Shown here: positions 1,559-53,790 of the stretch, piece by piece | Position numbering within the stretch: the stretch's first letter is position 1 | Layout: every line of letters starts with the position of its first letter | Origin: an uncultured Fibrobacterota bacterium | GTDB taxonomy: Bacteria; Fibrobacterota; Fibrobacteria; Fibrobacterales; Fibrobacteraceae | Direction of reading: 5' to 3' | DNA: 59,495 nucleotides | NCBI GenBank assembly: GCA_903876665.1 | Contig: CAIRAY010000019.1 | Coordinates: 1 to 59,495 of the forward strand | Made by a program: the position numbers and the translations under genes | The notes under the pieces: model-generated | Told to the model about the DNA's origin: nothing | What the model saw: only the letters and a program-made list of their open reading frames with translations | Databases searched by the model: none

Positions 1559-1564
1559 TATAAT
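1559..1564 (+). promoter_or_regulatory. -10 box TATAAT at a leaderless start
   Basis: A perfect TATAAT ends six bases before the ATG at 1571 and there is no Shine-Dalgarno sequence. Transcription would begin at or very near the start codon, as at many other genes in this window. Confidence 0.6.
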
Positions 1565-1570
1565 TCGGAT

Positions 1571-5569: not shown

Positions 5570-5570
5570 C

Positions 5571-5598
5571 TTGAAAATTCTTTCCATTAGGGTATAAT
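5571..5598 (+). promoter_or_regulatory. Sigma-70-like promoter of the hybrid kinase gene
   Basis: TTGAAA (5571-5576), a 16-base spacer and TATAAT (5593-5598). The expected start of transcription is within a few bases of the ATG at 5608, so the mRNA would be nearly leaderless. Confidence 0.7.
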
Positions 5599-5607
5599 TC
5601 TGTTAAT

Positions 5608-8982: not shown

Positions 8983-9002
8983 GATCATTATCCATTGATG
9001 AT

Positions 9003-9137
9003 TGTCATGCTCGTGCCGGGCATGACAAGACAACCGAACAAGGGCCTTACTGCAACAAGCCTGTCATGGCCGGAACGGCCATCACAGAACTCCGGTAAAT
9101 GAACGGCATGACAAGACAACGGGCATGTCATCCCCCG
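9003..9137. repeat. Cluster of REP-like inverted repeats between convergent genes
   Basis: Three hairpin-forming units lie between the two convergent kinase genes. TGTCATGC/GCATGACA pair at 9003-9027. CTGT-ATGGCCG/CGGCCAT-ACAG pair at 9061-9087. ATGAC/GTCAT flank 9108-9131. The block GCATGACAAGACAAC occurs twice (9020-9034 and 9106-9120). This looks like a small extragenic palindromic repeat and may also stop transcription from both sides, although no T-tract follows the stems. Confidence 0.6.
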
Positions 9138-9192
9138 AAGGAGGATCGCCGCACCTCGCCTGCCGGCTTCATGTTGCATCATTTCCCAGACA

Positions 9193-12336: not shown

Positions 12337-12384
12337 AGTCCCCTCCCCTGGGTTGTTTTTAATCCTAGCATTTTTTGCGGGAGT

Positions 12385-12414
12385 TTGGTTGGTGGCAACA
12401 AATATTGGTACAAT
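12385..12414 (+). promoter_or_regulatory. Promoter of the REC-HPt gene
   Basis: TTGGTT (12385-12390), an 18-base spacer and TACAAT (12409-12414). Transcription would start near 12421, leaving a short leader with GGAG (12431-12434) before the ATG at 12440. It lies in the 103-base gap shared with the divergent hybrid kinase gene. Confidence 0.55.
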
Positions 12415-12439
12415 TCATTCAAATGAACCAGGAGCATAT

Positions 12440-13243
12440 ATGAAAGGGGAACCCTTGCATCAAATTTTGTTAGTGGATGACAGCGAAACGATTCAATTGG
12501 TTATTTTAGGAATATTGGATTCTTTAGGACTCTGTGCAGATGTGGTAAATAGCGGAAGCGAATCTATTCAAGCACTTTCCCACGAAGATTATGATTTAGT
12601 TCTAATGGACATCCAAATGCCAGATTTGGACGGATACCAGACCACAAGAATCATTCGCAATCCAGCATCAACCGTCAGGAACCACCATATCCCCATAATC
12701 GCCATGACAGGCAACATCGGGGCCAGTGAGCGTAAAGCATGCCTGGAAGCCGGAATGGATGATTATTTGGCCAAGCCTATTTATAGACAGGAATTAACCA
12801 TAATCCTAAGTCGCTGGCTTCGGAATTCTCTTCCGGGAAGACAGGTGACCATTCCTGAATACATGATGACGAGTCAAGCGCTGCAATATTTTAACCAGGA
12901 AAACCTACTCGACCGCGTTGCCGGAGATCTGGATCTAGCCCAGTGCGTGGTGCGTGGCTTTTTGCAGGAGGTTCCCCTAAAACTCGCAGAGATCCGCATG
13001 GCCCTAGAGCGGGTGGACGCAATAGCCTGCGAACGTAGTGTGCACACCATCAAAGGCTCTGCGGCTACCGTGGGTGCGGATGTTTTCAGCATGCTTGCCT
13101 GGGATTTGGAGCTTGCCGCAAACAGTGGAAACCTGGAACGGGTGTCCCACCGCATGCCAGAGCTTGAGGCTCAATTCCGTGAGCTTAAACCTGTTCTCAC
13201 TGGATTCACGATGGCTCCTACCACTCCTTGCCCGGGTGAATGA
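12440..13243 (+). CDS. Response regulator with receiver and HPt domains
   Basis: A 267-residue phosphorelay shuttle. Residues about 8-125 are a receiver (ILLVDDSE, phospho-acceptor Asp in LVLMDIQMPDLDG, Lys in DYLAKPI). Residues about 155-250 are an HPt domain with His in VHTIKGSAATVG. There is no output domain. The start at 12440 is chosen because GGAG lies six bases upstream and the upstream in-frame region overlaps the divergent kinase gene. The receiver closely resembles the last receiver of the kinase at 5608-8982 (both have a TMEIRNP- or TRIIRNP-like stretch followed by VRNH), so the three genes probably arose together and exchange phosphate. Its end overlaps the convergent gene at 13218 by 26 bases. 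Confidence 0.9.
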   Translation: MKGEPLHQILLVDDSETIQLVILGILDSLGLCADVVNSGSESIQALSHEDYDLVLMDIQMPDLDGYQTTRIIRNPASTVRNHHIPIIAMTGNIGASERKACLEAGMDDYLAKPIYRQELTIILSRWLRNSLPGRQVTIPEYMMTSQALQYFNQENLLDRVAGDLDLAQCVVRGFLQEVPLKLAEIRMALERVDAIACERSVHTIKGSAATVGADVFSMLAWDLELAANSGNLERVSHRMPELEAQFRELKPVLTGFTMAPTTPCPGE

Positions 13244-14975
13244 TCTTGGCGGAGCACTTCTTGCTTGCCTTCAATAGGTTTTTGTATGGCCCACCCTTAG
13301 CATTTTTAATAAACGCCTGCTTATTGGAATCGTAGGCAAAAATATTCGGGTCTATGGTGATGCATTCATCACAGGCCGTACAGAGTTTGGATTCAATATA
13401 GGGCGTATCGAAATTCACAACAGGGGCCTGTATTTTAGATGCAATGGGGGCCGAAACCATTTTGAATGGATTCGTTTTATCCTGGGGTGCGACGGCGATT
13501 TGGCCAAGTTCCAATGCGGACAGTCCTGCCAAATTCCCCGCAAGCTTGGCCATGGCCTGTTGCACGGCTTCCTGGTTCAACGCTTCAATCTCGGATGACA
13601 AGTCATTACGAAGATCCGCCAAGGCGCTTTCTTTGTCCTTGGCAGCCTCGGTACGGAGCTGTTTTTCAAGTTCGGTAAGGTAGGGATTATTTACTCCCGA
13701 AACTTCGCAGAGGGACTTCCACAAGTGACGTTTATCCGCAGTCTGGGCCACAATACGCATCGATGGCACCTTTTTTACCAAAGCATTCTGGGAATTGCGG
13801 AAAAATATGAAAGGAAGCTTGCCACTTCGATCCGCATAGGGCAACTCGAGGTAGGCCGAAATTTCGATGGCGCGGGATTCCTGGTTCGCGGGCAAATCCG
13901 AAAAGTCACTCTGATATTGAGCTTCAGTAGCTGCAAAATCCGCAAAGGTAATCTTCTTTTGCATCAGGTCTTTTTTCCCTGCCGCATTCAAAAATTCGAT
14001 TGTGGAACTGGCCCAAACGTCTTTAAGATCGGGGTTCTCCGCTAGATCAAAGCGCTTCAGGAAAACCTCGGACTTGTCAGGATCGTAGCGGAAAAGAGGC
14101 AGGGCACGAGAGAGCACTGCTTGGTCACACCTGCCAGAATCTGCATCGTTCAATATGGAAAAAAGCCCAGGGCGCGGAGAAATGAGCCCCGCTTGCAGGT
14201 GGGCTATCGCCTGGGGCCGGGCAACGGTATCTTGGATTACATAGACACCCTTGAGCGCGACGGGAAGCATCTCAATTTCCAGAGAACAGCGCAGCGCAGT
14301 CGAGCGACTGAATGCCTGATAGGTATTGTAGAAGGCTGACTTTTCCAAAACCACCTTAACCGGAAGACCGGAGGTCACCAAGGGGAGCAAGGTACTGTAA
14401 AAAAGATTCTTGTCGCCCTGATCCTTGATCATGACCACAAAAGGGGGACAAAGCCCGACTTCATCGTTGGTAAGTTTTTCCCAATTGAAATCGGCAAAAT
14501 AGGAATCATGGACGGCAGGATCGTACTTGGAATTGCGTTCCAGCCAAGCCATGCGGATCAGCTTCAGGCATTCTGCCATTTGATTCAGGTGTTCCACGGC
14601 TTGTTTTTCAATGCCAGGAAGATCCGAAATCGCAATCACCTTGCAAGATGGAATACGACTTTCGAAGTCAATGTTCCAGACCGAGAGCTGCTGATGAAGA
14701 GCTTGAACCCGGGAATAGGTGCTGGAATCCAGTGCGGCTTTTTTCGCATTCTTTCCAAATACCTTGGAGACTGCGCCTAAGTCGAGACTCGCGCCCGCAA
14801 AGCTTCCCAGCGAACGCTCCAATTCCGCCTCATGGTGGCCCGATGTCCGCAATACTTCCAAAGTCAGAATATCAGAGACATTCTGGGTGGCAATGGAGAC
14901 TTTGTTGCGCAGGGCTTGTAGCGGAGCAGACCAGGCAGATTCAACGATTTCTTGCAGTTCCATATTATGACTCAA
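13218..14975 (-). CDS. PFOR-derived protein with C-terminal ferredoxin domain (585 aa), last gene of the Rnf-Kor operon
   Basis: Function unknown. Residues about 145-310 resemble the last (thiamine-diphosphate) domain of pyruvate:ferredoxin oxidoreductase, including PLFRYDP (293-299), a signature that follows the active-site domain in NifJ/PFOR. The GDG...N motif that holds Mg-ThDP is absent: the equivalent place reads VVMIKDQGDKNLF. Residues 145-181 also match part of the 1021-residue protein of the same operon (RYNPRIHDSFFQDF there, KYDPAVHDSYFADF here). A charged, coiled-coil-like stretch (about 430-480) precedes a ferredoxin domain with C532, C535, C538 and C574, enough for one [4Fe-4S] cluster. 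It overlaps korB by 11 bases, so translation is coupled. It could provide the electron-carrying subunit that KorAB lacks. Confidence 0.7.
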   Translation of the reverse strand: MSHNMELQEIVESAWSAPLQALRNKVSIATQNVSDILTLEVLRTSGHHEAELERSLGSFAGASLDLGAVSKVFGKNAKKAALDSSTYSRVQALHQQLSVWNIDFESRIPSCKVIAISDLPGIEKQAVEHLNQMAECLKLIRMAWLERNSKYDPAVHDSYFADFNWEKLTNDEVGLCPPFVVMIKDQGDKNLFYSTLLPLVTSGLPVKVVLEKSAFYNTYQAFSRSTALRCSLEIEMLPVALKGVYVIQDTVARPQAIAHLQAGLISPRPGLFSILNDADSGRCDQAVLSRALPLFRYDPDKSEVFLKRFDLAENPDLKDVWASSTIEFLNAAGKKDLMQKKITFADFAATEAQYQSDFSDLPANQESRAIEISAYLELPYADRSGKLPFIFFRNSQNALVKKVPSMRIVAQTADKRHLWKSLCEVSGVNNPYLTELEKQLRTEAAKDKESALADLRNDLSSEIEALNQEAVQQAMAKLAGNLAGLSALELGQIAVAPQDKTNPFKMVSAPIASKIQAPVVNFDTPYIESKLCTACDECITIDPNIFAYDSNKQAFIKNAKGGPYKNLLKASKKCSAKIIHPGKEW

Positions 14976-15930
14976 CCGAATAGCGGGTTAAATAATCATC
15001 CAGAAGTTTGGCTTTGGCCTTGCGGTCCACGGTGGCCACTTTGCTGTAGCGAATGTCGGAGTAGGTAGGAACTTCCGGATTGTAATAAATCAAGCCGAGG
15101 GGTTCTTTTTCCATGTGAGAATTGGCCGCTACCGCCTGCGCCGCATTGATGTTGCGCGGATCGTGGGCCACCACGGGTGCATCACGTAGAATCCCTTTGT
15201 CTACGGGAATTCCCTCTGGACTTTCCAAAAATTTTCCAGGAAAATCGACGCTGCCACCTTGGAAGGCGTTAGGCATAAAAACCGGGCACCGTTGCAGAAT
15301 ACGGACAAAGGCCAGGCCCTTGTGCTTCCATGCTTTTTCCAGAGTCGCCTGCATGTGCCCAGGCAACCAGGACGCTGTTTGTGCAATAAAGGAAATATTG
15401 GAAATACCCAGAGCCACACTCAATGGATTCAAGGGCTCCAAATAGGAACCGCGAGGCGAGGTATTGGAGACAGTACCGATCCTTGAAGTGGGAGAAACTT
15501 GCTTCTTGGTCAGCGCATAAATTTCATTGTCCAAAACCATGACCATAGAATTGATGTTGTAGCGCAGGGTATGAAGCCAATGGTTCCCGCCAATGGAGAA
15601 GCAGTCGCCATCACCCATGACGGTCAACAATTTCAGCTCAGGCCGGGCCAGGGACACGCCAACCGATACCGGCAAGGCGCGACCATGCAGGGTGTGGAAA
15701 CCATACGCCCGCAGGTAGTGAGGAAACCGGCTCGAACAGCCAATGCCCGAAACACAAACGACCTCTTCGGGGTGGACTTGATTGTCCCGCAACATGCGCT
15801 GGAGGGCTCCCAAGGCACCATGGCCTCCGCAACCCTTGCACCAGCGGGCAGCTTCAGTGGTGTAATCATCCATTCCATAACTACAGGTGGATTCTTCTTT
15901 CTGCACGAAGTCATCAATAGTTAACGACAT
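14965..15930 (-). CDS. korB: 2-oxoacid:ferredoxin oxidoreductase, beta subunit
   Basis: Thiamine-diphosphate subunit of a two-subunit 2-oxoacid (probably 2-oxoglutarate) oxidoreductase, which oxidises the acid to acyl-CoA and reduces ferredoxin. Motifs: WCKGCGGHG and SGIGCSSR, whose Cys residues with a later Cys in LQRCPVF bind the [4Fe-4S] cluster, and GDGDCFSIGGNH followed by LDNEIYALTKKQ for Mg-ThDP. The start ATG is at 15930, one base after the korA stop. The upstream ATG at 15993 would run into korA and is not preferred. 321 residues is normal for KorB. Substrate assignment to 2-oxoglutarate rather than pyruvate or another 2-oxoacid rests on overall resemblance. Confidence 0.9.
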   Translation of the reverse strand: MSLTIDDFVQKEESTCSYGMDDYTTEAARWCKGCGGHGALGALQRMLRDNQVHPEEVVCVSGIGCSSRFPHYLRAYGFHTLHGRALPVSVGVSLARPELKLLTVMGDGDCFSIGGNHWLHTLRYNINSMVMVLDNEIYALTKKQVSPTSRIGTVSNTSPRGSYLEPLNPLSVALGISNISFIAQTASWLPGHMQATLEKAWKHKGLAFVRILQRCPVFMPNAFQGGSVDFPGKFLESPEGIPVDKGILRDAPVVAHDPRNINAAQAVAANSHMEKEPLGLIYYNPEVPTYSDIRYSKVATVDRKAKAKLLDDYLTRYSVES

Positions 15931-15931
15931 A

Positions 15932-17797
15932 TTAAATCCCCTTCTTGGTTTTGAGGGCTTGAATTTCTTGCCGGATAACGCCATGTACTTCACATGGCAT
16001 CAGGGGGCGGCCTGGAACCATGCCCCAGCAATCCACATCTACCAAAGTATTGGCCCGCAAGATAATGGCCAGCTGGGCATAGCGGCGGTTTTCTTCGGTG
16101 ATGTATGGATCTCCCATGCGGTCACAATAATTGAGTTCGACGGTCATTACCTTTTTGAACTTTTGGAACGCGGCCTTGATTCCTGGTGGCAATGGGGAGA
16201 TGAACTGGATGTTCATTGCCGACACACGCAGTCCTTCCGCCTGGGCTCTTTCTACGGCTTCCCAAATGGCGCCACGGGTAGAGCCCCAACCCACGATCAG
16301 CAGATCCCCTTCGGCTTCTCCAAAGATTTCCGGAGCCTTCAGAGTGGATTGCAGGACCGCCAATTTGCGGCTACGCATGGTCATTCCCTTTTGATTGGAT
16401 TCGGCCAGGTAATTGATTTTGCCGGCTTCATTGTGATTCAGGCCCGTTGCGACCCACATGCCATTTGGGCGCCCGGGCAGGATCCGCTGAGAAAGCCCCG
16501 TTTCCAGATCCCAGTCAAAGGGCTTGGCACCGGCTTCCACTGGGCTCAGATCCAAAGGCGTGGTCAACATGTCCTCGACTACCTTGGGACGGGCAAATAG
16601 CTGACGCCCGGTGGCCAAATTGGCATCGCTCAGCACAATGACCAGGGCTCGGAATTCTTCGGAGATTTTGCGAGCCAGGGGCATGATGTGGTAACATTCC
16701 TCGATCGAGCTAGGAGCCATCACTACCTTGGGTGCGTCCCCGGGAGAGGCAAATAGGGCGTTGAGCAGATCACCTTGTTCCACCTTGGTGGGAAGTCCCG
16801 TAGAAGGGCCTCCACGCTGGACATTCACACAGACCAAGGGAGTTTCGGTCATCACGGTCAGACCCAAAAATTCGGTCTTAAGCGCCATTCCTGGCCCGGA
16901 AGTAATGGTCAGGGCAGGCTTGCCCGCCCAATTGGAGCCAATGGCCACACCCACTGCGGCGATTTCGTCTTCTGCCTGATGAACCAGGCCACCGAAATCT
17001 TCAAAAAAGGCCGCGAGCTCGTGGGAAGCAGAAGTGGCCGGGGTAATGGGATACATGGAGCAGAGTTCATACCCCGCAGCGATGGAGCCCAGGGCGATGG
17101 CGGTATTGCCGTTCATCGCCACCTGTTCGGGCAGTCCTTTCACGGGCGCCACAACGAAGGTCTGAGAAAAATGGTTCATCCCAAATACATAGCCCGCTTC
17201 AATCAGATCCATATTTTTTTGAATCACGGCCGGTGGTTTTTTGGCGAAAATTCCCCGCACAAACGACTTGGCAACCTCAAGATCCTTGTTGTACAGACAA
17301 GACAACATGCCCACGATAAACATGTTTTTTCCCTTGGCGGAATCATCCGTGACTTTGGCGCAGGCTGCATCGATTGGCAACTCCCAAACCTGGCCACCCT
17401 GGGTAGACAAGGAATCCAGAACTTCCCGGTATTGTTTGCAAATCTGAGGGTCCGCATGGGTGGCCCACATATTATCGATAATCACAATCACATCTGGCGC
17501 CAGTGCGCCAACCTGGATCCGGGAAAGCAAAGCCATTTCGTTGAAGGCCACCACCAGGTTGGTGAGGTCGCCCCCATTGGTAACCGGACGGGAGGAGAGG
17601 CGAATGCGATTTCCGCTTGCGCTCCCTACCGTGTGCGGTGGCGGCTGGATTTCGGAAGGAATAATCTCGACGGTCCACAAGCCATTGCCGCTCTTGGCGC
17701 AGAGCTCGGCAAAGGTGGTACCGGCCTTTTGGGCGCCTTCACCCGCATCGCTTACGATTTCAACAATATGTTCTTTGAGCTGTATAGGTTCTTTCAT
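15932..17797 (-). CDS. korA: 2-oxoacid:ferredoxin oxidoreductase, fused gamma-alpha subunit
   Basis: Partner of KorB. The N-terminal 190 residues are the gamma domain, here with an unusual insertion (PPPHTVGSASGNRIRLSSRP near 60-80). From about 195 the alpha (pyrimidine-binding) domain follows, with GNTAIALGSIAAGYELCS and MYPITPATSASHELA, then the domain II part with GWGSTRGAIWEAVERAQ. The start at 17797 (MKEPIQLKE) is five bases after the upstream Cys-rich gene; an ATG at 17842 would overlap that gene. The arrangement alpha before beta is usual for kor operons; no separate delta (ferredoxin) subunit is present, but the downstream 585-residue protein carries a ferredoxin domain. Confidence 0.9.
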   Translation of the reverse strand: MKEPIQLKEHIVEIVSDAGEGAQKAGTTFAELCAKSGNGLWTVEIIPSEIQPPPHTVGSASGNRIRLSSRPVTNGGDLTNLVVAFNEMALLSRIQVGALAPDVIVIIDNMWATHADPQICKQYREVLDSLSTQGGQVWELPIDAACAKVTDDSAKGKNMFIVGMLSCLYNKDLEVAKSFVRGIFAKKPPAVIQKNMDLIEAGYVFGMNHFSQTFVVAPVKGLPEQVAMNGNTAIALGSIAAGYELCSMYPITPATSASHELAAFFEDFGGLVHQAEDEIAAVGVAIGSNWAGKPALTITSGPGMALKTEFLGLTVMTETPLVCVNVQRGGPSTGLPTKVEQGDLLNALFASPGDAPKVVMAPSSIEECYHIMPLARKISEEFRALVIVLSDANLATGRQLFARPKVVEDMLTTPLDLSPVEAGAKPFDWDLETGLSQRILPGRPNGMWVATGLNHNEAGKINYLAESNQKGMTMRSRKLAVLQSTLKAPEIFGEAEGDLLIVGWGSTRGAIWEAVERAQAEGLRVSAMNIQFISPLPPGIKAAFQKFKKVMTVELNYCDRMGDPYITEENRRYAQLAIILRANTLVDVDCWGMVPGRPLMPCEVHGVIRQEIQALKTKKGI

Positions 17798-17802
17798 AAC
17801 GA

Positions 17803-17994
17803 CTATCCTTTTTCCGGAACAACTTCCGGCCTTTGATGACAATCCAGGTGACAGGATTCACAACCGGCACTAGGCCTGCAGGGGTCTACATTCTTCATAG
17901 TTTTTTTGTGCAAGAGGCTCACTTTGGCCCACAGAAGCGACAGGATCCAAATCACTCCAATTGTGGCAAATACTGGCAATAAAACATCAAACAT
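17803..17994 (-). CDS. Small Cys-rich single-pass membrane protein (63 aa)
   Basis: One membrane helix (about residues 3-23, VLLPVFATIGVIWILSLLW) followed by a basic stretch and a short tail with four Cys: CRPSAGCESCHLDC. The arrangement resembles the small FeoB-associated Cys-rich membrane proteins, but the Cys pattern differs and there is no feoB here. The start at 17994 has GGAGG seven bases upstream and sits one base from the rnfA stop. Its place between rnfA and korA, in a tightly coupled operon, suggests a role in the Rnf-Kor machinery, perhaps an Fe-S or electron-transfer link at the membrane. That function is inference only. Confidence 0.75.
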   Translation of the reverse strand: MFDVLLPVFATIGVIWILSLLWAKVSLLHKKTMKNVDPCRPSAGCESCHLDCHQRPEVVPEKG

Positions 17995-17995
17995 A

Positions 17996-18577
17996 TTAAC
18001 CTCCCATTCCTGCAAAACCCATAAAAGCCATCGACAAAATCCCTGCAATCATCAGGGTCAGTGCTGTGCCTTTAATGAGACGCGGAATATTTGCGAATTC
18101 AAGGTCCTGGCGAAGACCCGCCATAATGGTCAGGGCCAGGGTATATCCTGCGCCCGCGCCCAAAGCAAACACCAGGGCTTGCAATAAGTTGTATTCGCGG
18201 TTGGTCTGGAACAAAGCCACCGCAAGGATTGCGCAGTTGGTGCTAATTAATGGCAAAAATATGCCCAAGGCTCTAAAGAGCGAGGGGCTGAATTTCTTAA
18301 CCAGCATTTCCACCAATTGCACCGCAGAGGCAATGACGGCAATAAAGGATATGAGTTGCAAATATTCAGCGTGCATTTTTACCAAAACCCAATGGATGGC
18401 AAAAGCCGAGCCCGAGCTCACCAGCATTACAAAGGTCACTGCGGCACCAAGTCGTAGAGCCGTATCGGCCTTTTTGGATACACCCAAAAAGGAACAAATG
18501 CCTAAAAAATAGGCCAGCACAAAATTATTAATGATACATGAACTCAGGAATATAAAACCCAACGAATCGGTATTCAT
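17996..18577 (-). CDS. rnfA: Rnf complex subunit A
   Basis: Integral membrane subunit of the ferredoxin:NAD+ oxidoreductase (ion-translocating Rnf complex). 193 residues with six predicted helices. The first half has the typical NNFVLAYFLGICSFLGVS text with the conserved Cys, and LISTNCAILAVALF supplies the second; together with RnfE these Cys are known to hold an iron centre at the membrane interface. The start overlaps the rnfE stop by four bases (ATGA), indicating coupled translation. Confidence 0.96.
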   Translation of the reverse strand: MNTDSLGFIFLSSCIINNFVLAYFLGICSFLGVSKKADTALRLGAAVTFVMLVSSGSAFAIHWVLVKMHAEYLQLISFIAVIASAVQLVEMLVKKFSPSLFRALGIFLPLISTNCAILAVALFQTNREYNLLQALVFALGAGAGYTLALTIMAGLRQDLEFANIPRLIKGTALTLMIAGILSMAFMGFAGMGG

Positions 18578-19197
18578 GCTTTCGTCCTCATTTTTTTGAC
18601 CCGTTCATTAATCACATTGACCACGAGGAGCAATGCGCCCAGCACAAAAAAACCACCACTGGGAAGAATCATGATCACCCAAGGTTCGTAGGAAGGACCA
18701 AAGACGGAAATGCCCGCAAAGGTTCCATTGCCAATCACTTCGCGGATAGCGCCCATGCAGAACAAGGCCAAGGTGAACCCCAGCCCACTCCCAAGGGCAT
18801 CAAGGCCCGAAAGCCAAATTCCATTTTTGGAAGCGAAGGATTCGGCGCGACCCATGATAATGCAATTCACGACAATCAGTGCAATGAATGCGCCCAAGCT
18901 ACGGTATATTTCAATACTGATCGCTTGGATGATGTAATCCGCCACCGTAACAAAGGTGGCAATAATCATGATGAAGGAGGCGATGCGGACTTGGGGGGGA
19001 ATCAGGTTGCGAAGCATCGAAATCAACATGCTAGAAGAAACCAGAACAAAGGTCGTGGCAAGCCCCATGGAGAGGGAATTCGAGACCGAATTGGTTACGG
19101 CGAGGGTTGGGCACATCCCCAAAAGAAATACGAATACCGGATTTTCCTTCCACAGCCCACTCAAAAAGGTGGTTGCAGACAAACTAGTCTTTTCCAT
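18574..19197 (-). CDS. rnfE: Rnf complex subunit E
   Basis: Membrane subunit paired with RnfA. 207 residues, six helices, with NPVFVFLLGMCPTLAVTNS and LIVVNCIIMGRAESFA carrying the conserved Cys residues. It overlaps rnfG by 14 bases and rnfA by four. The order C-D-G-E-A with B placed first, rather than A-B-C-D-G-E, resembles the arrangement of clostridial rnf operons except that rnfB leads. Confidence 0.96.
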   Translation of the reverse strand: MEKTSLSATTFLSGLWKENPVFVFLLGMCPTLAVTNSVSNSLSMGLATTFVLVSSSMLISMLRNLIPPQVRIASFIMIIATFVTVADYIIQAISIEIYRSLGAFIALIVVNCIIMGRAESFASKNGIWLSGLDALGSGLGFTLALFCMGAIREVIGNGTFAGISVFGPSYEPWVIMILPSGGFFVLGALLLVVNVINERVKKMRTKA

Positions 19198-19813
19198 GAT
19201 AACCCTCCACCATTCGCGCGATGATGGGGATCATCGTCGATGAATTGGATTGAAGCAGACGGCCCACCGCTTTGGAGGAAATGGTTGCACCCGTAATCCC
19301 GTCAATTTGCCAAGCCTCCGTTTTCTTCCCGGATTTTGTCACTTGCAGGGAATGAAGCAAGCCCGAAGAATCGGCATTGAGGCTCAAATCCAAAGCGGTG
19401 AAATTGGCGCAGAATTTGGCATCCTTTTCGATTTTATCGCCTAGGCCGGGGGTTTCCTTGGACTCAAGCACCTTCAGTCCAATCATGACCTGCCGTTTGG
19501 GAGAGTAACCATAAATCACTTTGATGATATCTGCAAACCCTTGCCCCTGCGCCTCAATCGCCACGCCGGAAACCTGGTGGGAATCATCATATCCGAAAAA
19601 CAACCGCCCTGCGTCCGGACCGTCCAGGCGGACGACTTTGACATGGGTGGAACCAGGGAGGACCTCCAGGGCTGCCGCCTGAACCATCAGATCCTTGTTG
19701 GCCTGAATGGGCTTTAAGGTTAACTGATAAGAAGTTACAATCAAAACCCCGGAGATCACGGCGATCAAGCCAAGGGTATTGATCATTTTCCAGCTGGTCA
19801 CAGTCTCGCTCAT
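19184..19813 (-). CDS. rnfG: Rnf complex subunit G, covalent flavoprotein
   Basis: Periplasm-facing electron-transfer subunit with one N-terminal helix (about 10-30) and a soluble FMN-binding domain. DGITGATISSKAV contains the SGAT-type motif (here TGAT) whose Thr carries FMN through a phosphoester bond. GYSPKRQVMIGLKVLESKETPG is the usual preceding text. 209 residues from the ATG at 19813; longer in-frame starts run into rnfD and are rejected. It overlaps rnfD by four bases. Confidence 0.95.
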   Translation of the reverse strand: MSETVTSWKMINTLGLIAVISGVLIVTSYQLTLKPIQANKDLMVQAAALEVLPGSTHVKVVRLDGPDAGRLFFGYDDSHQVSGVAIEAQGQGFADIIKVIYGYSPKRQVMIGLKVLESKETPGLGDKIEKDAKFCANFTALDLSLNADSSGLLHSLQVTKSGKKTEAWQIDGITGATISSKAVGRLLQSNSSTMIPIIARMVEGYHGKD

Positions 19814-20820
19814 TTGGACGCCCTCACCCCATAGACCCGGGGAATCATCAGGCGGTTCATGAGAGGAACCAGAGCGTTGGCCAAAAGGATCACATACATG
19901 ACGCCTTCGGGCAATCCTCCCCAGATGCGGATGACTACCACCACCATGCCGATAAAGGCGGAATAAACCCACACGGCCAAAGGGTTGATGGGCGAAGTCA
20001 CCATATCGGTGGCCATGAAAACGGCACCGAGCATGAGGCCTCCAGAAAATACCGTGAAGAGCGGAGTGGGATAAGTGGGGTCCACTGCATGCAAAATGCC
20101 GGTGAGAATGGCTGCGGAAGCAATAATTCCAACGGGAATCCGCCAGTCCAGCATTTTGCGGATTGCAAGATATGCGCCACAGCAGAGAATCAATAAGGAT
20201 GAGGTTTCTCCGATGGAACCCGCAACCCCGCCCAGGAATAAATCAGAGACACCCGTCGCCACGCACTCAAATTTGAACGCAGCCAGCGGAGTGGCGCCAG
20301 ACATGCCATCCACCACAGGCTTGGAGAAGGGGAAAGCGAAGGTGGAGGAAGGGAAGGAGGAAAAGCGATCCAAAGCAAAGGTGGCTGACCAAGTGGTAAT
20401 GGAAGCAGGAAAAGCAGTTTGCAAAAAGGCCCGCCCCACTAGGGCTGGATTGAAAGGGTTATACCCAAGTCCTCCGAAAATCATTTTCCCCAGCAAAATA
20501 GAAACGACCGAACCCACCAAGGTCATCCAAAGAGGAAAGCTCGGCGGAAGGGTTAGCCCCAAAAGAATTCCCGTAATCAAAGAGGAATAATCGGAAGTAC
20601 TTTGCTCGCGGCCCGTCAAACGGTTGTAGATACTTTCCGTCACAAAGCATCCCATGGTTGCTGTGACCACCACAGCCAAAGCGCCTAGACCAAACAGGTA
20701 GACAGCATAAGCCACAATGGGCAACATGGCATAAACCACATGTCGCATAATCATGCGCACATCCAGTTTATTTTGGACATGGGGGGAAGTGGTCAAGGTG
20801 GTCGGTAGAAATTTACCCAT
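19810..20820 (-). CDS. rnfD: Rnf complex subunit D
   Basis: Membrane flavoprotein subunit, 336 residues. VDGMSGATPLAAFK contains the SGAT motif for covalent FMN. GGLGYNPFNPALVGRAFLQ and ATDMVTSPINPLA are standard RnfD/NqrB signatures. The start at 20820 overlaps the rnfC end by eight bases; the longer frame to 20928 lies inside rnfC. FMN-carrying motif and helices appear intact. Confidence 0.96.
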   Translation of the reverse strand: MGKFLPTTLTTSPHVQNKLDVRMIMRHVVYAMLPIVAYAVYLFGLGALAVVVTATMGCFVTESIYNRLTGREQSTSDYSSLITGILLGLTLPPSFPLWMTLVGSVVSILLGKMIFGGLGYNPFNPALVGRAFLQTAFPASITTWSATFALDRFSSFPSSTFAFPFSKPVVDGMSGATPLAAFKFECVATGVSDLFLGGVAGSIGETSSLLILCCGAYLAIRKMLDWRIPVGIIASAAILTGILHAVDPTYPTPLFTVFSGGLMLGAVFMATDMVTSPINPLAVWVYSAFIGMVVVVIRIWGGLPEGVMYVILLANALVPLMNRLMIPRVYGVRASK

Positions 20821-22141
20821 TTGATTTCCCGCTGGCCTTGCGCTCGCGCGCGATCTGCTTACTGATCCGGAATTGTTGCACGAGAGGTATGTTGGATGGA
20901 CAGACATAGCTGCAACATCCGCATTCAAAGCAATCCATCAAATTGCACTCACTGACCATTCTGTCGTATTCTCCCTTGCGGGCCATGAGGCCAAGTCGCG
21001 CGGGTATTAAATGCACCGGACAGGCGTTGACACAGGCCCCACAACGGATGCAGGGATAAATGACCCGTTCCTGCTCATCCCGGCTTGCTAAAACCACAAT
21101 TCCGGAAGTGCCTTTGGTCACAGGCGATTCTAGGAAGGAAACGGATTTTCCCATCATGGGACCGCCGAAAATAACTTTGTACGGAGTTCCGTGGGTTCCC
21201 AGAGTGCTGAGAATAAAATCAAGGGGGGTTCCAATGGGAATCAAATAATTCCCTGGTTTTTTGATTCCATCTCCGGTTATTGTAACCACGCGCTCAATGA
21301 GCCCCATCCCCACAGGCAACAGGCGCCCAATCTCAGCAGCAGTGGCGATATTGGATATCATGATTCCAATGTCGGCGGGGATTCCGCCCGAAGGAACTTC
21401 CTTGCCGAACATGGCCTTGGTGAGCATTTTTTCGGCACCCTGAGGGTACTTGGTCTTGAAAACCTCTACCCGGATGTTTGCCTCATTTTCACAGGCTTTA
21501 CGCATGACCGCAATGGCATCGGGCTTATTGTCCTCGATGGCGATTACCAGATCCGTCGCCTTTGCCGCCCGCAACAAAAGCTTGGCCCCCAGCACAATAT
21601 TCGCGGATTGCTCCAGCATGACCCTATGGTCGGAGGTCAAATAGGGCTCACACTCCGCCCCATTCAAAATAATGGCTTGAATGGATTTTCCTTTGGGAGG
21701 AGAAAGCTTGACATGGGTCGGAAACGCAGCGCCACCAAGACCCACCATTCCCATGTCCCGAATGGCCTGCACAATTTGTTCTGGAGTCAATTCATCCACA
21801 TTCACTGACGAAGAGACTTCTACATCTTGACAGGAGGCCGGATCTGGAATGATGACGATGGAGGGCGTGGGGTTTCCGTTGCTATCTAAGGAATTCCCCA
21901 CCAGCTTTACCAAGCCCGTTACGGGGGCATGCACCGGTACCGAAACGAATCCATCAGGCAGAGCGATCACCTGACCCCGTCGCACCTGCTGGCCAGCCTG
22001 CACAATCGAGCGGGCAGGCGTTCCCGCGTTCTGCGCCAGATGCACCACGTAATAGGGAGCAAAGGGGAATCGACGCACCGGCTTTCCTGCGGTGAGAATT
22101 TTGGCGTCGTCGGGATGGATTCCGTGGGGGAAAGTTCGCAT
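20813..22141 (-). CDS. rnfC: Rnf complex subunit C
   Basis: Peripheral cytoplasmic subunit that carries FMN and reduces NAD+. 442 residues. The N-terminal part has a barrel-sandwich domain (VQAGQQVRRGQVIA). The central SLBB/NADH-binding part has GGAAFPTHVKLSP and NGAECEPYLTSDH. Two [4Fe-4S] sites follow: CIRCGACVNACP and CFECGCCSYVCPSN. The ATG at 22141 is preferred over a TTG at 22159 because GGGGA lies upstream of it and it starts four bases after the stop of the preceding gene. Confidence 0.96.
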   Translation of the reverse strand: MRTFPHGIHPDDAKILTAGKPVRRFPFAPYYVVHLAQNAGTPARSIVQAGQQVRRGQVIALPDGFVSVPVHAPVTGLVKLVGNSLDSNGNPTPSIVIIPDPASCQDVEVSSSVNVDELTPEQIVQAIRDMGMVGLGGAAFPTHVKLSPPKGKSIQAIILNGAECEPYLTSDHRVMLEQSANIVLGAKLLLRAAKATDLVIAIEDNKPDAIAVMRKACENEANIRVEVFKTKYPQGAEKMLTKAMFGKEVPSGGIPADIGIMISNIATAAEIGRLLPVGMGLIERVVTITGDGIKKPGNYLIPIGTPLDFILSTLGTHGTPYKVIFGGPMMGKSVSFLESPVTKGTSGIVVLASRDEQERVIYPCIRCGACVNACPVHLIPARLGLMARKGEYDRMVSECNLMDCFECGCCSYVCPSNIPLVQQFRISKQIARERKASGKSNG

Positions 22142-22145
22142 CAAA

Positions 22146-25100
22146 CTAAGTCCCCGCAAGTTGGATCAAGGAACGGGTGACATTTTCAATCACCTCTTTC
22201 TGTACGGATTCACGCAGGGCGGACTCATCCAGGGGAGGACGATTGAGTCCTTTCAGTTGGCGCAGAAGAGCTTTGCAGCTCTGGTATTCCTGGGTGCGAT
22301 CGAGCAGCTCCCGGGACACCTTCAAGGATTGGGTGGTTTTTACCACAGGCACCGTTTCCTGCCGATCTTCAAAATCCAAGCCCAGATAATCCGCAACGGG
22401 CGTACCGGTCAAGGTATTGAGAGGGGAAAAATGCGAGGCAAAGGAAGGGTCGCTGACCACGAGATCGGCGAAGGTCTGTCCCGCGCGGAAAGAGGCATCG
22501 AGCTGGGTCTTGGGGTGCAGGATTATCGTTTCAGAAAAATCCCCGGAAGTCCCGGAATACATGGGGTACACACCAGAGTTCACTGCACGGCCAGAGAACT
22601 CCGCATAGTTCTTGCCCCCAGGACTCAGTATTTGAAAAATGGATGGCTTCTCAGAACGGAACCCGGCAGAAAACCCATGCAGCAGGTGTTCCTGATCCTC
22701 CAGGGAACTTTGCAACACAAACAAATCATGCGCAATCAACTGCTGGAGCAAGGAAGATGGATGGGAATGGAGCGTATCAAAAATGAGAACCTTGATGGGA
22801 GCCCCGGTGCGGAACAATTCATTCAAGGCGCTTGGGCGACGGAAAAAATCCGTGTCGGTTCCGGTGATCACGAGCGGTGGACAAAGGGCGAGCTCTTCGG
22901 CAGATAATTGTTTCCAATGGAAATCCTGAAAAAAGGAGTCGTGAATGCGGGGATTGTAGCGTCCTGCAAGCTCAAGTTCGGTCTTGCGCAGGGTAATAAA
23001 ATCCGAGCAAATCTTGGACATGTGAGCTTCCCAAATTCCCAAGGCCAGTTCGATCCCTTCCCCACTTCCGTTCTGAGCCCAGGGAACCACCACGGGCGAC
23101 CATGGATAGACGCCTGCCGCATTCTGGCTGATAATGCCATGGGAAGAGCACCCTAGTCCAATGCTGCCCTGCAGATGCTTCTGCCGCAAGGTATCAAGCT
23201 CCCCCAACAGGGTGTGCACATGGACGAGCCACTGCCGATCAACAGGATTCTGTTCCCGGTCCATGCGTTGGGCAAGCTCTGCCAAGGTGAGGTCGTTTCC
23301 GGTCAAATTTTCTAGCACCTTGTTCAAGTCGCCCGATAAATTTACAGACAAACGTTGTTTATTGTGGAGTTTCAATCTCGCTAAATTTTCTTCGGCCCTT
23401 CCGAGCAGGATCCGGGATTTTTTGCGGGCCTCGATGCGGGCCACGGCGGAAAATAAATGTGAGATCGTTTGAGTGGAGGTGTCTTCGGTCTTCACAAAGG
23501 ACTGGAAGGCATCCTTGTCCAATAACACATTTTCAGGCTTTTCCAGAAAACGTGGCGAGGAGTTGGGAAGCAAATTGAAAAAGGCGCGCTGGGCTTCGGT
23601 ATTGTCTACGACCAGAATGCCGCCATCCACAAAGGTCGCGGCAGGAAGAACATGTCCCGCATTCCTAAGCTCGCTCCCCAGCGCAGCACGGTCACCACTG
23701 TAGGATTCAATCACCACCGGAAGGCTTTCCTCCCAAATCATCCGCAAAGGAATACCATCGCGACCAAGAGTCTTCAGAGTTGAGGCGAGGATTCGGGCAC
23801 AAGAATCCAAATGGCGGATGGAAAAATTTTCGCGTTGCAGGAAGGCTACCAGCGTATTTACGAAATCCGCAGGTTCCACCATTCGGCGGGCATGAATTTC
23901 GATTTCGGCCTGGAACATTTTTCCCGAGCCCGCGGGCAAAACGCCCGTCGCCAGCACGGGAGTCGCCACCACCAGAGAAGTCTGGCCTGATGCTAAAAAC
24001 TTGCCATTGTGCGCCCAGAAACTATGCAAATCCGCAAGTGGCTCTAGCGTGGTCGGATGGTGGCTCAAGGCGTCGGGAGTTGGAATGGGACGACGGGAGC
24101 TACGCACCTCGTCCTCAATGGATTCTTGAGGGATATTATAAAGATCGGAAATGCGCTGATTGTAGATCTCTTCTTTGGGATTCAAAGGAGGCTGAAACAG
24201 AAACCGCGCTCCGGCAATCCCAACTGGATTTTCGGAATTCAGGGCGAGAGCAGCAGAAATGGCCTGCGGATTAATGGAGCCATAATGCACCAAAGAAAAC
24301 CCTGGCAATCCCAGGGCCGTAGACAAGGCCCGGGAATGGTTCCTGTCTATGAAGGAAAGAGTTTTGCGGGCCAGCTTTTTATGGAGTTCCGGCGTCATGA
24401 AATTCACCTTCACCAAAGGCAAATCCCTGGACAAATCCTGAGGAATGGCTTCGGTGGTCACGACCCAGTGGTCTGCGCCTTCATTCAGAAAAAAGGAATC
24501 GAGGTGCTGGCGGCCGGTCAATTCCGCGAATTCCTTCACGATGGCCTGTAGCAGGTCCGCAACATGATTGGTGAAAAAAGTCTGTCGTGCAGCCCATTGA
24601 CGGTCGCGCAGAATGGCGGGAACATTGAGCCCGGTGGTCATGGGAAGGTCGAGATTCCAGAACTCAGGGATACGACGGCGCGTTTCGCCAAAAAGAATTT
24701 TCTGCGCTGGGGTCGGCGAATCAATCAGGTCTTGGGCCGTTCCCAGGAACTTGGAAATAACCCCAGAATCAGGATGGACATATTCGGTTTCACAGCTGGA
24801 GTGGATCACCATGACCGGAAGCAAGGCCACCTCGCTCAGGCGATGGGCAATCAAAGTAAAATCTGCGGATTGTTGAGAGTTGCCCGCAAAAAAACGAAAA
24901 AGCGGAAGACGGAGGGTCTGGTTGTTTCCGGTAGAAAGGTCCTTCACATGAATGACCAGTGGCAGGGTTTTTTGGGTCAAGTTGGTAAGGGCTATGGCCT
25001 GCTCATTCAATTTTTCATTGGTGAACAGCGCAGAACTGCGCAAACCACCCAGGGCCGCCCCGGTAATGTGGCTGATGGAGTGATCGCTCTTCCAGCGGGC

Positions 25101-25211
25101 ACCGCAAATTTCCTGTTCCAAGGATTCCACCACCGCAAATTGTCCAGCCGTGCGGCTTTCGTTTCGTTTGCCATGGTGCAAATCTGAATGTCGGTTCTTC
25201 CTAAAAAACAT
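22146..25211 (-). CDS. PFOR-shaped protein without Fe-S or thiamine-diphosphate motifs (1021 aa), between rnfB and rnfC
   Basis: No family name recognised. Segments align in order with pyruvate:ferredoxin oxidoreductase (NifJ): FTLIAHRLSEVALLPVMVIH near 130-150 (LVAHLAAIESNVPFMHFF in NifJ); FAELTGRQHLDSFFL near 240; GGILVVDNTEAQ and following text near 510 (domain III); LGCSSHGIISQN at 685-697 followed by NGSGEGIELALGIW (TGCSSIW and GPAWGNSLFED in NifJ); and AVNSGVYPMYS near 876-886. The ferredoxin domain V with its CxxCxxC motifs is missing, and the GDG...N site is replaced by TGTDTDFFRRP. It therefore looks like a PFOR that has lost catalysis. AAGGA precedes the start by eight bases. It shares one block with the 585-residue protein at the operon end. 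Confidence 0.75.
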   Translation of the reverse strand: MFFRKNRHSDLHHGKRNESRTAGQFAVVESLEQEICGARWKSDHSISHITGAALGGLRSSALFTNEKLNEQAIALTNLTQKTLPLVIHVKDLSTGNNQTLRLPLFRFFAGNSQQSADFTLIAHRLSEVALLPVMVIHSSCETEYVHPDSGVISKFLGTAQDLIDSPTPAQKILFGETRRRIPEFWNLDLPMTTGLNVPAILRDRQWAARQTFFTNHVADLLQAIVKEFAELTGRQHLDSFFLNEGADHWVVTTEAIPQDLSRDLPLVKVNFMTPELHKKLARKTLSFIDRNHSRALSTALGLPGFSLVHYGSINPQAISAALALNSENPVGIAGARFLFQPPLNPKEEIYNQRISDLYNIPQESIEDEVRSSRRPIPTPDALSHHPTTLEPLADLHSFWAHNGKFLASGQTSLVVATPVLATGVLPAGSGKMFQAEIEIHARRMVEPADFVNTLVAFLQRENFSIRHLDSCARILASTLKTLGRDGIPLRMIWEESLPVVIESYSGDRAALGSELRNAGHVLPAATFVDGGILVVDNTEAQRAFFNLLPNSSPRFLEKPENVLLDKDAFQSFVKTEDTSTQTISHLFSAVARIEARKKSRILLGRAEENLARLKLHNKQRLSVNLSGDLNKVLENLTGNDLTLAELAQRMDREQNPVDRQWLVHVHTLLGELDTLRQKHLQGSIGLGCSSHGIISQNAAGVYPWSPVVVPWAQNGSGEGIELALGIWEAHMSKICSDFITLRKTELELAGRYNPRIHDSFFQDFHWKQLSAEELALCPPLVITGTDTDFFRRPSALNELFRTGAPIKVLIFDTLHSHPSSLLQQLIAHDLFVLQSSLEDQEHLLHGFSAGFRSEKPSIFQILSPGGKNYAEFSGRAVNSGVYPMYSGTSGDFSETIILHPKTQLDASFRAGQTFADLVVSDPSFASHFSPLNTLTGTPVADYLGLDFEDRQETVPVVKTTQSLKVSRELLDRTQEYQSCKALLRQLKGLNRPPLDESALRESVQKEVIENVTRSLIQLAGT

Positions 25212-25236
25212 GATTCAAGTCCTTTGTCACAGCCAA

Positions 25237-26109
25237 TTATCCGATGGGCAATGCTTTGGTCCGAATGACCCGTTTTGCGGCCTGTCCGGTCTCAAACTGA
25301 TTCTTTTCGTTGATCCAGATGATCGCCCCGGTTGGACACCGGGCAATGATGGATGGGGTCGCAAAATCATTGAGGGCGTAGTCAATCACGGGCAAATTAT
25401 TTTTCATGGAAACCAAGCCTCCACTGGCATCCATGGCACACTTGCCACAGGCGATACAAGCCACGGCGCACTCGGCCTCAGCGGCGTCTCCGGCCTCAAT
25501 ATTTTTGCAGTTGACCCACAGCTGCCGAGAAACGGGCTGAATGGAAAACAATTGCTTCGGACAGATTTCTACGCAGTCCCCGCACGCCGTGCATTTGTCC
25601 AGGTCCACAGACGGAAGTCCGTTTTCGCTAAAGGATATGGCACCGAAATTACACACAACACCACAATCTTTTAGCCCCAGGCAACCCCAGTAACAACCTT
25701 TTCCACCTCCGGCAACTAGGGCTGCAGCCCGGCAGGATTCCATTCCGGTGTAACGCGTGCGCTGACGCGCAACATGTGCCCCTCCGGCGCAGGCAAGCCT
25801 TGCGACCCGTTTTTCCGTGTCACCGAGCTCTACACCCAAGTGGGAGGCAATTTGCAGTTTGACCCCGGCGCTACTGATGGTGCATTTTGCAGGGTTTTCC
25901 GTTCCCCCGACCAGAGCCTCCGCAAAGGCACGGCAACCCGGATTGCCACAGGCGCCACAATTCGACCCAGGAAGCATCTGCTCCACTTGGTCAATTCTGG
26001 GGTCCTCCACCACCGCCAACTTGCGGTTGGCAAAGGCAATAACCCCCGCCAGGAAGGCTCCGAGCCCACCCATGAAAAGAACTGCAGGAATCACAATCTC
26101 AGAGTTCAT
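25237..26109 (-). CDS. rnfB: Rnf complex subunit B, ferredoxin-like input subunit
   Basis: Membrane-anchored multi-cluster ferredoxin that takes electrons from reduced ferredoxin. 290 residues: an N-terminal helix (5-25), the Fe-S domain NCGACGNPGCRAFAEAL, an internal Cys-rich region (SCRAAALVAGGGKGCYWGCLG), then CTACGDCVEICP and CIACGKCAMDAS cluster sites, with RCPTGAIIW near the end. First gene of the eleven-gene leftward operon; a TATCTTTG promoter lies about 70 bases upstream. Confidence 0.95.
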   Translation of the reverse strand: MNSEIVIPAVLFMGGLGAFLAGVIAFANRKLAVVEDPRIDQVEQMLPGSNCGACGNPGCRAFAEALVGGTENPAKCTISSAGVKLQIASHLGVELGDTEKRVARLACAGGAHVARQRTRYTGMESCRAAALVAGGGKGCYWGCLGLKDCGVVCNFGAISFSENGLPSVDLDKCTACGDCVEICPKQLFSIQPVSRQLWVNCKNIEAGDAAEAECAVACIACGKCAMDASGGLVSMKNNLPVIDYALNDFATPSIIARCPTGAIIWINEKNQFETGQAAKRVIRTKALPIG

Positions 26110-26178
26110 TTTGACCCAGAAAAAAGACGAACCAAACCAAAATCAGGATGAATGACGGCTCATGCCGAACAAGCGCGC

Positions 26179-26186
26179 CAAAGATA
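26179..26186 (-). promoter_or_regulatory. TATCTTTG promoter of the Rnf-Kor operon
   Basis: On the minus strand TATCTTTG matches TAnnTTTG. Transcription would start near 26173, giving a leader of about 60 bases before rnfB. No clear upstream element was seen. Confidence 0.6.
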
Positions 26187-26216
26187 GGATTTTTGGAGGC
26201 TTTTAGTACCCAGGGA

Positions 26217-53773: not shown

Positions 53774-53790
53774 AAGCGAGGAGCCGCACC

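What the first reader, a model, noticed from the sequence alone, without database searches (positions are those of the whole stretch)
13218..26109. Rnf and 2-oxoacid oxidoreductase genes fused into one operon with two PFOR-derived proteins
Eleven leftward genes (rnfB, 1021-aa protein, rnfC, D, G, E, A, 63-aa Cys-rich protein, korA, korB, 585-aa protein) overlap or nearly touch throughout, so they form one transcription unit behind a single TATCTTTG promoter. Known: Rnf takes electrons from reduced ferredoxin, Kor produces reduced ferredoxin. Inference: the extra proteins help channel electrons from Kor to Rnf without free diffusion of ferredoxin. I do not know a described operon of this composition.
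Basis: partly seen in the sequence, partly recalled or inferred. Interest (0 to 1): 0.93.

Follow-up and report, generated by a model that had tools for sequence, protein, structure and literature searches.

The report
Rnf pump with built-in 2-oxoacid oxidase
One operon, read here and in six other bacterial families, joins the genes of the Rnf ion pump to those of a 2-oxoacid-splitting enzyme and of two proteins descended from the metabolic enzyme PFOR, which in this genome have both lost PFOR's catalytic residues and would likely hold the enzyme on the pump and hand over its electrons directly.

Summary
In detail: eleven leftward genes (rnfB, 1021-aa protein, rnfCDGEA, 63-aa protein, korA, korB, 581/585-aa protein), gaps -14 to +25 nt. 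Both unknown proteins are PFOR-derived. P1021 keeps scaffold domains but lacks the gamma domain, every Fe-S motif and the TPP/Mg motifs. P585 is a dead beta-type domain plus an intact single-cluster ferredoxin on a predicted flexible linker. A second Fibrobacteraceae genome has the identical order; six families of other phyla show the same composition in one of two orders, five more show parts of it. A PFOR core profile hit 20 genomes, all 20 inside rnf clusters (G359 was added from its neighbours); 5 of 5 PFORs of another type are not. The embedded PFOR looks active in 4 of 21 judgeable copies. I infer an Rnf complex with a docked 2-oxoacid oxidoreductase: PFOR ancestrally, KorAB here, with the dead PFOR as scaffold and a tethered ferredoxin as electron arm. 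Ten searches of an open-licence library showed no such operon. No complex, electron path or direction is shown experimentally. The claimed promoter is not supported.

The parts
25237..26109 (-). rnfB, 290 aa, Fe-S electron-input subunit of Rnf
   Evidence: TIGR01944 71.9 bits vs cut-off 68.7; PF04060 FeS
22146..25211 (-). P1021, PFOR-derived protein without catalytic or Fe-S motifs, encoded between rnfB and rnfC; proposed scaffold
   Evidence: 124 hits, 120 listed: itself, 8 homologs of 1004-1034 aa, the rest mostly PFOR-type proteins of 1400-1700 aa; domain map and motif loss; Foldseek top hits are PFOR on a weak model
20813..22141 (-). rnfC, NADH/FMN subunit of Rnf
   Evidence: TIGR01945 502 bits vs 245.95
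19810..20820 (-). rnfD
   Evidence: TIGR01946 307 bits vs 207.05; start by comparison with L003
19184..19813 (-). rnfG
   Evidence: TIGR01947 93.9 bits, below its cut-off 102; FMN_bind 51.8 vs 22
18574..19197 (-). rnfE
   Evidence: TIGR01948 239.6 bits vs 213.4
17996..18577 (-). rnfA
   Evidence: TIGR01943 232.3 bits vs 229.3
17803..17994 (-). 63-aa small protein: hydrophobic N-terminal stretch plus CxxCxxxC tail; possibly an Rnf maturation factor (inference)
   Evidence: counterparts in L003 (61 aa) and L110/L137 (54 aa) at the same place; no real Pfam match
15932..17797 (-). korA, fused gamma-alpha subunit of 2-oxoacid:ferredoxin oxidoreductase
   Evidence: TIGR03710 488.6 bits vs 482.75; best solved relative 6n2n_A E 3.8e-79
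14965..15930 (-). korB, TPP-binding beta subunit with cluster cysteines
   Evidence: TPP_enzyme_C 82.9 bits; 5b46_B and 6n2n_B E about 1e-46
13218..14963 (-). P585 (581 aa from this ATG): dead PFOR beta-type domain plus C-terminal ferredoxin
   Evidence: residues 129-582 of the 585-aa form align to PFOR about 1149-1634 at 28-31%; Fer4_13; model pLDDT 82.7
13230..13391 (-). ferredoxin domain of P585 (about residues 525-578 of 581)
   Evidence: Fer4_13 31.5 bits vs 24.5; D. africanus ferredoxin I 1fxr TMt 0.84; cysteine pattern
13413..13520 (-). predicted disordered linker of P585 (residues 482-517 of 581)
   Evidence: pLDDT below 50 over 482-517; composition in relatives
26110..26216 (-). 107-nt gap before rnfB holding TATCTTTG; promoter unproven

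Best explanation
This operon likely encodes a membrane-bound 2-oxoacid:NAD+ oxidoreductase, in which a 2-oxoacid:ferredoxin oxidoreductase (KorAB) would be docked onto the Rnf ion pump by two proteins derived from PFOR. Proposed working: KorAB oxidises a 2-oxoacid (2-oxoglutarate by family naming) with CoA and passes electrons to its own Fe-S cluster. The ferredoxin domain of P585, on a flexible linker, picks them up and swings to RnfB. Rnf then reduces NAD+ and pumps ions. P1021, encoded between rnfB and rnfC, is the dead remnant of a PFOR that once sat on Rnf; it keeps docking surfaces and carries no electrons. Shown by sequence: gene order and its recurrence, PFOR ancestry, loss of catalytic motifs, intact ferredoxin motif, intact-looking KorAB and Rnf. 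Inferred: the physical complex, the docking roles, the swinging arm, the direction and the substrate.
For: (1) Same eleven-gene order in L003. Longest-contig lengths of KorA, P1021 and P585 homologs coincide in metagenomes (22922, 69425, 40205 for all three; 24854 and 12812 for two), so they probably share contigs. (2) PFOR-core profile A3: 12 hits below E 1e-60 in 391 genomes, all 12 in rnf clusters; 8 further hits (E 1e-118 to 7e-30) in the phyla of G373, G270 and G219, all 8 in rnf clusters; 5 hits (E 1e-27 to 1e-34) to PFORs without a ferredoxin tail, 0 of 5 near rnf or kor. (3) Catalytic motifs of the embedded PFOR: intact in 4 of 21 judgeable copies (G373 L116, G391, G387, G223), lost wholly or partly in 17. 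(4) In the 15 clusters where the C-termini of both the PFOR-like and the P585-like protein can be read, there is always at least one ferredoxin tail: on P585-like only in 13, on PFOR only in 1 (G223, over two contigs), on both in 1 (G354). (5) The stretch before the ferredoxin is usually richer in Ala/Pro and poorer in large hydrophobics than the core; the P585 model has a disordered linker there. (6) RnfC of these clusters groups apart from seven of eight ordinary RnfCs of the window's phylum.
Against: No experiment. KorAB-P585-like without rnf in 19 kb exists (G175), so P585-like may first of all be a Kor subunit. G394 has korB, P585-like, rnfB and PFOR-like but no recognisable korA in the 10 kb beyond korB. 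The P1021 model is poor (mean pLDDT 60.2, residues 1-219 below 50) and its PDB matches have low TM-scores (0.15-0.18), so no docking surface can be named. The linker is not Ala/Pro-rich in every relative (P0126 0.13, P0131 0.15, L118b 0.09). The genome also encodes NifJ and a second KorAB, so free ferredoxin is probably present. One ordinary RnfC (G052) falls beside the cluster RnfCs (support 1.0). The later genomes were drawn from phyla of earlier hits.
Confidence: 0.5

Rival explanations
1. Same assembly, opposite direction: Rnf uses NADH and the ion gradient to push low-potential electrons through the tethered ferredoxin to KorAB, which carboxylates succinyl-CoA to 2-oxoglutarate.
For: Rnf runs both ways (PMC12174285 abstract start, and PMC3534657 passage); OGOR is reversible (recalled). 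F. succinogenes makes succinate by the reductive branch and is reported to lack both OGOR and Rnf (PMC4814513, passages), so a gained pair could serve biosynthesis.
Against: Nothing in the sequence sets the direction; no rTCA genes were looked for.
Confidence: 0.2
2. Metabolic operon only: KorAB and Rnf are co-expressed and linked by free ferredoxin; the PFOR-derived proteins are assembly, regulatory or ferredoxin-storage factors.
For: P1021 has no redox motif; KorAB-P585-like can lie without rnf; other Rnf loci of the phylum lack these genes (0 of 18 read).
Against: The PFOR-like gene lies in an rnf cluster in all 20 genomes hit by the core profile, in 11 families besides Fibrobacteraceae counting G359; every readable cluster keeps at least one tethered ferredoxin.
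Confidence: 0.24
3. P1021 and P585 are decaying remnants of a horizontally gained PFOR with no function.
For: All PFOR catalytic motifs are lost in both.
Against: Nine P1021 family members (with the query) are full-length with many invariant columns; of fifteen aligned P585 members 14 keep the ferredoxin motif (P0136 ends before it); the split and order recur in distant genomes.
Confidence: 0.03

Closest known systems
Ferredoxin-tailed PFOR of about 1620-1650 aa (e.g. P0011, named Saprospiraceae; P0029, named Algoriphagus)
   Same: P1021 and P585 align over large parts of their length; the ferredoxin tail is very similar (CTxCxEC...HPG)
   Different: Here split into two proteins, gamma domain and catalytic motifs gone, ferredoxin only on P585
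Rnf complex (RnfABCDGE)
   Same: All six subunits with family-level matches, rnfG below cut-off
   Different: PFOR-derived gene between rnfB and rnfC, and kor genes in the same operon; ordinary operons read in the phylum are rnfCDGEAB (PMC4814513 passages)
Two-subunit KorAB / OGOR, e.g. Magnetococcus marinus 6n2n
   Same: KorA E 3.8e-79 and KorB 1.5e-46, catalytic segments aligned
   Different: Has a third protein with a tethered ferredoxin encoded next to korB
RnfH of Azotobacter vinelandii Rnf1
   Same: Extra cytoplasmic Rnf subunit without a redox cofactor (PMC12174285, passage)
   Different: Not compared here by sequence; P1021 is PFOR-derived
Endoriftia korABCD-Hdr-Flx cluster and 'PFOR-like' gene
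   Same: OGOR genes clustered with electron-transfer genes; PFOR-like and korAB(3) fall together in expression (PMC11636981, passages)
   Different: korABCD lies with Hdr-Flx there; the passages read describe no PFOR gene inside an rnf operon
Swinging-arm carriers (lipoyl domains of 2-oxoacid dehydrogenases; recalled)
   Same: Carrier domain on an Ala/Pro-rich linker
   Different: Carrier here is a ferredoxin; mobility is only predicted

Membership tests
Rnf complex | Six subunits A, B, C, D, G, E encoded together | tested here: met
   TIGRFAM cut-offs passed for A, B, C, D, E; G is 93.9 bits against a cut-off of 102
Rnf complex | Ferredoxin:NAD+ oxidoreductase coupled to ion transport | not testable with these tools
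   needs biochemistry
2-oxoacid:ferredoxin oxidoreductase (KorAB) | Gamma-alpha subunit and TPP-binding beta subunit with conserved segments | tested here: met
   KorA passes TIGR03710; KorB's best family TIGR02177 (215.3 bits) is below its cut-off 261.9, but TPP_enzyme_C passes and the CxxC, GDG and CP segments are present
PFOR enzyme (P1021) | TPP/Mg motifs, proximal cluster ligands, gamma domain | tested here: not met
   motifs absent; gamma domain coverage 0.0; residue roles recalled
PFOR enzyme (P585) | TPP/Mg motifs and proximal cluster ligands | tested here: not met
PFOR ancestry (P1021, P585) | Sequence and fold similarity to PFOR | tested here: met
   P1021 E 1.7e-81 against P0011; P585 blastp E to 4.6e-75; Foldseek PFOR at the top for both, with low TM-scores
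Single-cluster ferredoxin (P585 C-terminus) | Four-cysteine 4Fe-4S motif, Fer4_13 | tested here: met
   cluster binding itself not shown
NqrM-like maturation factor (63-aa protein) | Membrane helix plus cysteine tail and family match | tested here: inconclusive
   CxxCxxxC shared with L003; no real Pfam match

The most novel reading that the evidence does not exclude
A class of respiratory complex, with PFOR-like genes inside rnf clusters in twelve bacterial families, in which the Rnf pump carries its own 2-oxoacid oxidase: first an active ferredoxin-tailed PFOR, later replaced by KorAB while the PFOR died in place and became the docking scaffold, with electrons delivered by a ferredoxin on a swinging tether and no free ferredoxin.
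Probability: 0.44. Interest if true: 0.88.

Novelty: new variant of a known kind. Interest (0 to 1): 0.75.

Why it matters
Reduced ferredoxin is treated as a free pool that Rnf taps. A pump with its own oxidase and a tethered ferredoxin would be a different way to conserve that energy, protecting very low-potential electrons from side reactions. It would also be a clear case of an enzyme that died and stayed as a scaffold while another took over its chemistry. Living relatives with active and dead forms of the embedded PFOR make this testable.

Tried and rejected
Pseudogene decay: disfavoured. 'Unique to this genome': rejected. Inheritance with the phylum's ordinary Rnf: disfavoured; 18 Rnf loci from other classes (of 36 other genomes above cut-off) show rnf genes without kor or these proteins in the stretch read, apart from two short chance-like PFOR matches of 60 and 24 residues in L056 and L064, and seven of eight ordinary RnfCs branch elsewhere. 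The octamer as promoter: not supported. s63 as a Pfam NqrM: no match. Sequence matches to solved structures: only chance hits for P1021, only a ferredoxin for P585. Docking residues from conservation: columns kept in 20 Rnf-embedded sequences but changed in five non-Rnf PFORs were listed; the five are one clade, so ancestry confounds it; not used. Names for the other phyla: G handles bear none. Full composition in G394: looked for and not found, no korA beside korB. Tree: partly dead G283 falls inside the active group, suggesting at least two losses, but that group's own node has support 0.66 only.
Full report
What is there. The window lies on contig C19 of a draft genome. The family name Fibrobacteraceae is inferred from named relatives: the only genome contigs match to P1021 is titled 'Fibrobacter sp.' and database proteins close to KorA and P585 bear that family's name. 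Eleven leftward genes run from 26109 to 13218: rnfB, P1021, rnfC, rnfD, rnfG, rnfE, rnfA, a 63-aa protein, korA, korB and P585. Gaps are -14 to +25 nt once starts are set by comparison. A ThiF-family gene (26217-27020) points the same way 107 nt upstream; on the left P585 overlaps, tail to tail, a response-regulator/Hpt frame (12167-13243).

Known parts. The Rnf subunits match their families (rnfG below cut-off). KorA passes TIGR03710, and its best solved relative is 6n2n_A, M. marinus OGOR. KorB keeps the CxxC, GDG and CP segments seen in alignments to 5b46_B and 6n2n_B. 'Kor' as a 2-oxoglutarate enzyme rests on database names of relatives and is not tested.

P1021. No family profile passes. 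The protein search scored 7995 candidates and gave 124 hits, 120 listed: the window protein, eight homologs of 1004-1034 aa (41-58% identity), then mostly PFOR-type proteins of 1400-1700 aa. Aligned to a 1620-aa PFOR (P0011), P1021 covers the POR_N region (0.81), PFOR_II (0.68), the stretch after gamma (0.77) and the beta-domain regions (0.78-0.86), none of the gamma domain, 0.04 and 0.18 of the two ferredoxin-type clusters, and none of the C-terminal ferredoxin. PIT, catalytic Glu, CxxC, STGC, GDG, NTGGQ and C1071 motifs are absent (residue roles recalled from D. africanus PFOR). It has 7 cysteines and no CxxCxxC. The model is weak (pLDDT 60.2); the fifteen PDB hits with E at most 0.001 are all PFOR, 14 of them from M. 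thermoacetica, with TM-scores of only 0.15-0.18.

P585. Residues 129-582 align to the last third of eight PFORs at 28-31%. The TPP motifs are gone and the ferredoxin is kept. The model has pLDDT 82.7; residues 482-517 are the only segment listed below 50, directly before the ferredoxin, which resembles D. africanus ferredoxin I (TMt 0.84); PFOR matches follow at low TM. In 26 P585-like proteins the 54 residues before the ferredoxin (which can include the end of the preceding helix) have an A+P fraction of 0.09-0.57 (core 0.10-0.20) and a fraction of F, I, L, M, W, Y of 0.04-0.22 (core 0.19-0.31); the window's own values are 0.28 (core 0.15) and 0.22 (core 0.27). P585 and P1021 are related to each other (E 3e-17).

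Distribution in the phylum. P1021: G000 and G006 of 60 relatives. P585: the same two of 111 family genomes. rnfC above cut-off: 38 of 120 phylum genomes, in the window's family only G000 and G006. G006's locus has the coordinates and ORFs of JAAZFC010000109.1 (L003), with the identical order and identities, from RnfB to P585, of 70, 49, 67, 64, 40, 71, 77, 28, 75, 75 and 40%. The module's KorA is at most 38% identical to any other KorA hit in 167 phylum genomes (19 with E at most 1e-60). Eighteen Rnf loci from other classes have rnfC-D-(G)-E-A-B order and no kor, P1021 or P585 match. F. succinogenes is reported to lack Rnf and OGOR (PMC4814513, passages). Gain of the module by transfer is therefore likely (inference).

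Other phyla. Profile A2 (P585) hit 21 of 391 relatives. Thirteen carry a P585-like protein apart from PFOR (G000, G006, G354, G359, G270, G219, G381, G240, G373, G387, G175, G389, G346); in the other eight the match lies in a PFOR-type or other frame. Order A, rnfB - PFOR-like - rnfCDGEA - (small protein) - korAB - P585-like: G354, G359 and G387, besides G000 and G006; the small protein was seen in G000, G006 and G359 only. Order B, korAB - P585-like - rnfB - PFOR-like - rnfCDGEA: G381, G399 and G401; G240 and G400 cut by fetch or contig ends after rnfE and in rnfC; G373 L115 cut in PFOR-like; G346 beginning in P585-like; G219 with one extra ORF between korB and P585-like; G270 with ORFs between rnfB, PFOR-like and rnfC and two korA-like frames; G394 with korB, P585-like, rnfB, PFOR-like and rnf but no recognisable korA in the 10 kb beyond korB. 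G223 has korB, a 338-aa relative of the P585 N-terminus without ferredoxin, rnfB, PFOR and rnfC over two contigs. G175 has korAB-P585-like and no rnf in the 19 kb read; G389's contig ends. So rnf, kor, P585-like and PFOR-like can be read together in six other families (f182, f64, f93, f117, f66, f87), and in f79 up to a contig end.

PFOR core. Profile A3 gave 12 hits below 1e-60 in 391 genomes, all in rnf clusters; five weaker ones (1e-27 to 1e-34) belong to 1517-1621-aa PFORs without ferredoxin tail, none with rnf or kor in the 7-20 kb read. The remaining A3 rows are second matches in P585-like proteins. The phyla of G373 (4 of 5 genomes hit), G354 (1 of 2), G270 (2 of 2) and G219 (5 of 9) added 8 new genomes, E 1e-118 to 7e-30, all 8 in rnf clusters; in G392, G393 and G398 the contig ends before rnfB. 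G359's PFOR-like gene was not found by A3 and was read from its neighbours. Outside Fibrobacteraceae these carriers span 11 families (f64, f66, f70, f79, f87, f93, f117, f130, f176, f182, f203). The later genomes were chosen because a hit lay in their phylum.

Active and dead. Of 21 judgeable embedded copies, 4 keep every catalytic motif (G373 L116, G391, G387, G223) and 17 do not (the fragment L115 was dropped; G392, G393 and G398 are partial frames judged on the motifs they contain). G283 and G354 keep the proximal cluster ligands but lose TPP motifs; G270 and G394 keep GDG but lose the others. Of the 17, eleven keep both ferredoxin-type clusters, two more (G401, G398) keep the one that can be read, and G000, G006, G359 and G394 do not show two. 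In the 15 clusters readable at the C-termini of both proteins there is always at least one ferredoxin tail: 13 on P585-like, 1 on PFOR, 1 on both. This complementation is the best hint that the tail is the working part.

Trees (FastTree). The PFOR tree joins the P1021 family with G359 (0.95) and places partly dead G283 inside the active group (1.0 with P0091 and G223; the group itself 0.66). The RnfC tree groups G000, G006, G354, G359 and G387 (order A, 0.98), joined by G373 L116 and G391 (1.0), and ten order-B or partial genomes (0.90); all nineteen cluster RnfCs sit with one ordinary RnfC, G052, apart from the other seven.

Mechanism and limits. I propose that KorAB feeds Rnf through P585's tethered ferredoxin, with P1021 as a redox-silent scaffold. 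The complex, the docking roles, the arm's motion, the direction and the substrate are inferences.

Literature. Ten searches of an open-licence library showed no operon of this kind in their listings. Passages only were seen of PMC11636981, PMC12174285, PMC4814513, PMC4914600, PMC4014512, PMC3534657, PMC12542636 and PMC9124969; other papers as listings. Most subscription papers and all bioRxiv preprints are missing there, so prior description is not excluded.

Noticed in passing
window 12167-13243 (+) and 9193-12336 (-): A response-regulator/Hpt frame and a hybrid histidine kinase are divergent and overlap as called by longest ORF (the first one's true start is probably further in); the former overlaps the 3' end of P585 tail to tail by 26 nt.
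   Followed up: no
window 26217-27020 (-): ThiF-family (E1-like) gene directly upstream and codirectional with rnfB; may share transcription with the operon.
   Followed up: partly
window 51048-51120 (+): tRNA-Gly (CCC) with uncharacterised ORFs to its right (51338-59348); an integrated element is possible but untested.
   Followed up: no
L119 (G175) 5229-10277: korA-korB followed by a 783-aa P585-like protein with ferredoxin tail, but no rnf genes in the 19 kb read; suggests P585-like can serve KorAB alone.
   Followed up: partly
L147/L153 (G394): A cluster with korB, P585-like, rnfB, PFOR-like and rnf but no recognisable korA in the 10 kb beyond korB.
   Followed up: partly
L136 (G270) 1513-5548: Two korA-like frames stand side by side next to korB.
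   Followed up: no
L111 (G270) 4021-5808: A 596-aa ORF with a hydrophobic start sits between the PFOR-like gene and rnfC.
   Followed up: no
L113 and L114 (G381, G240): The P585-like protein carries a long extra N-terminal part (1465-1470 aa in all), of unknown nature.
   Followed up: no
G000 C100, C111 (L047, L048): The genome also encodes an ordinary NifJ-type PFOR with intact motifs and a second, distant korAB.
   Followed up: partly
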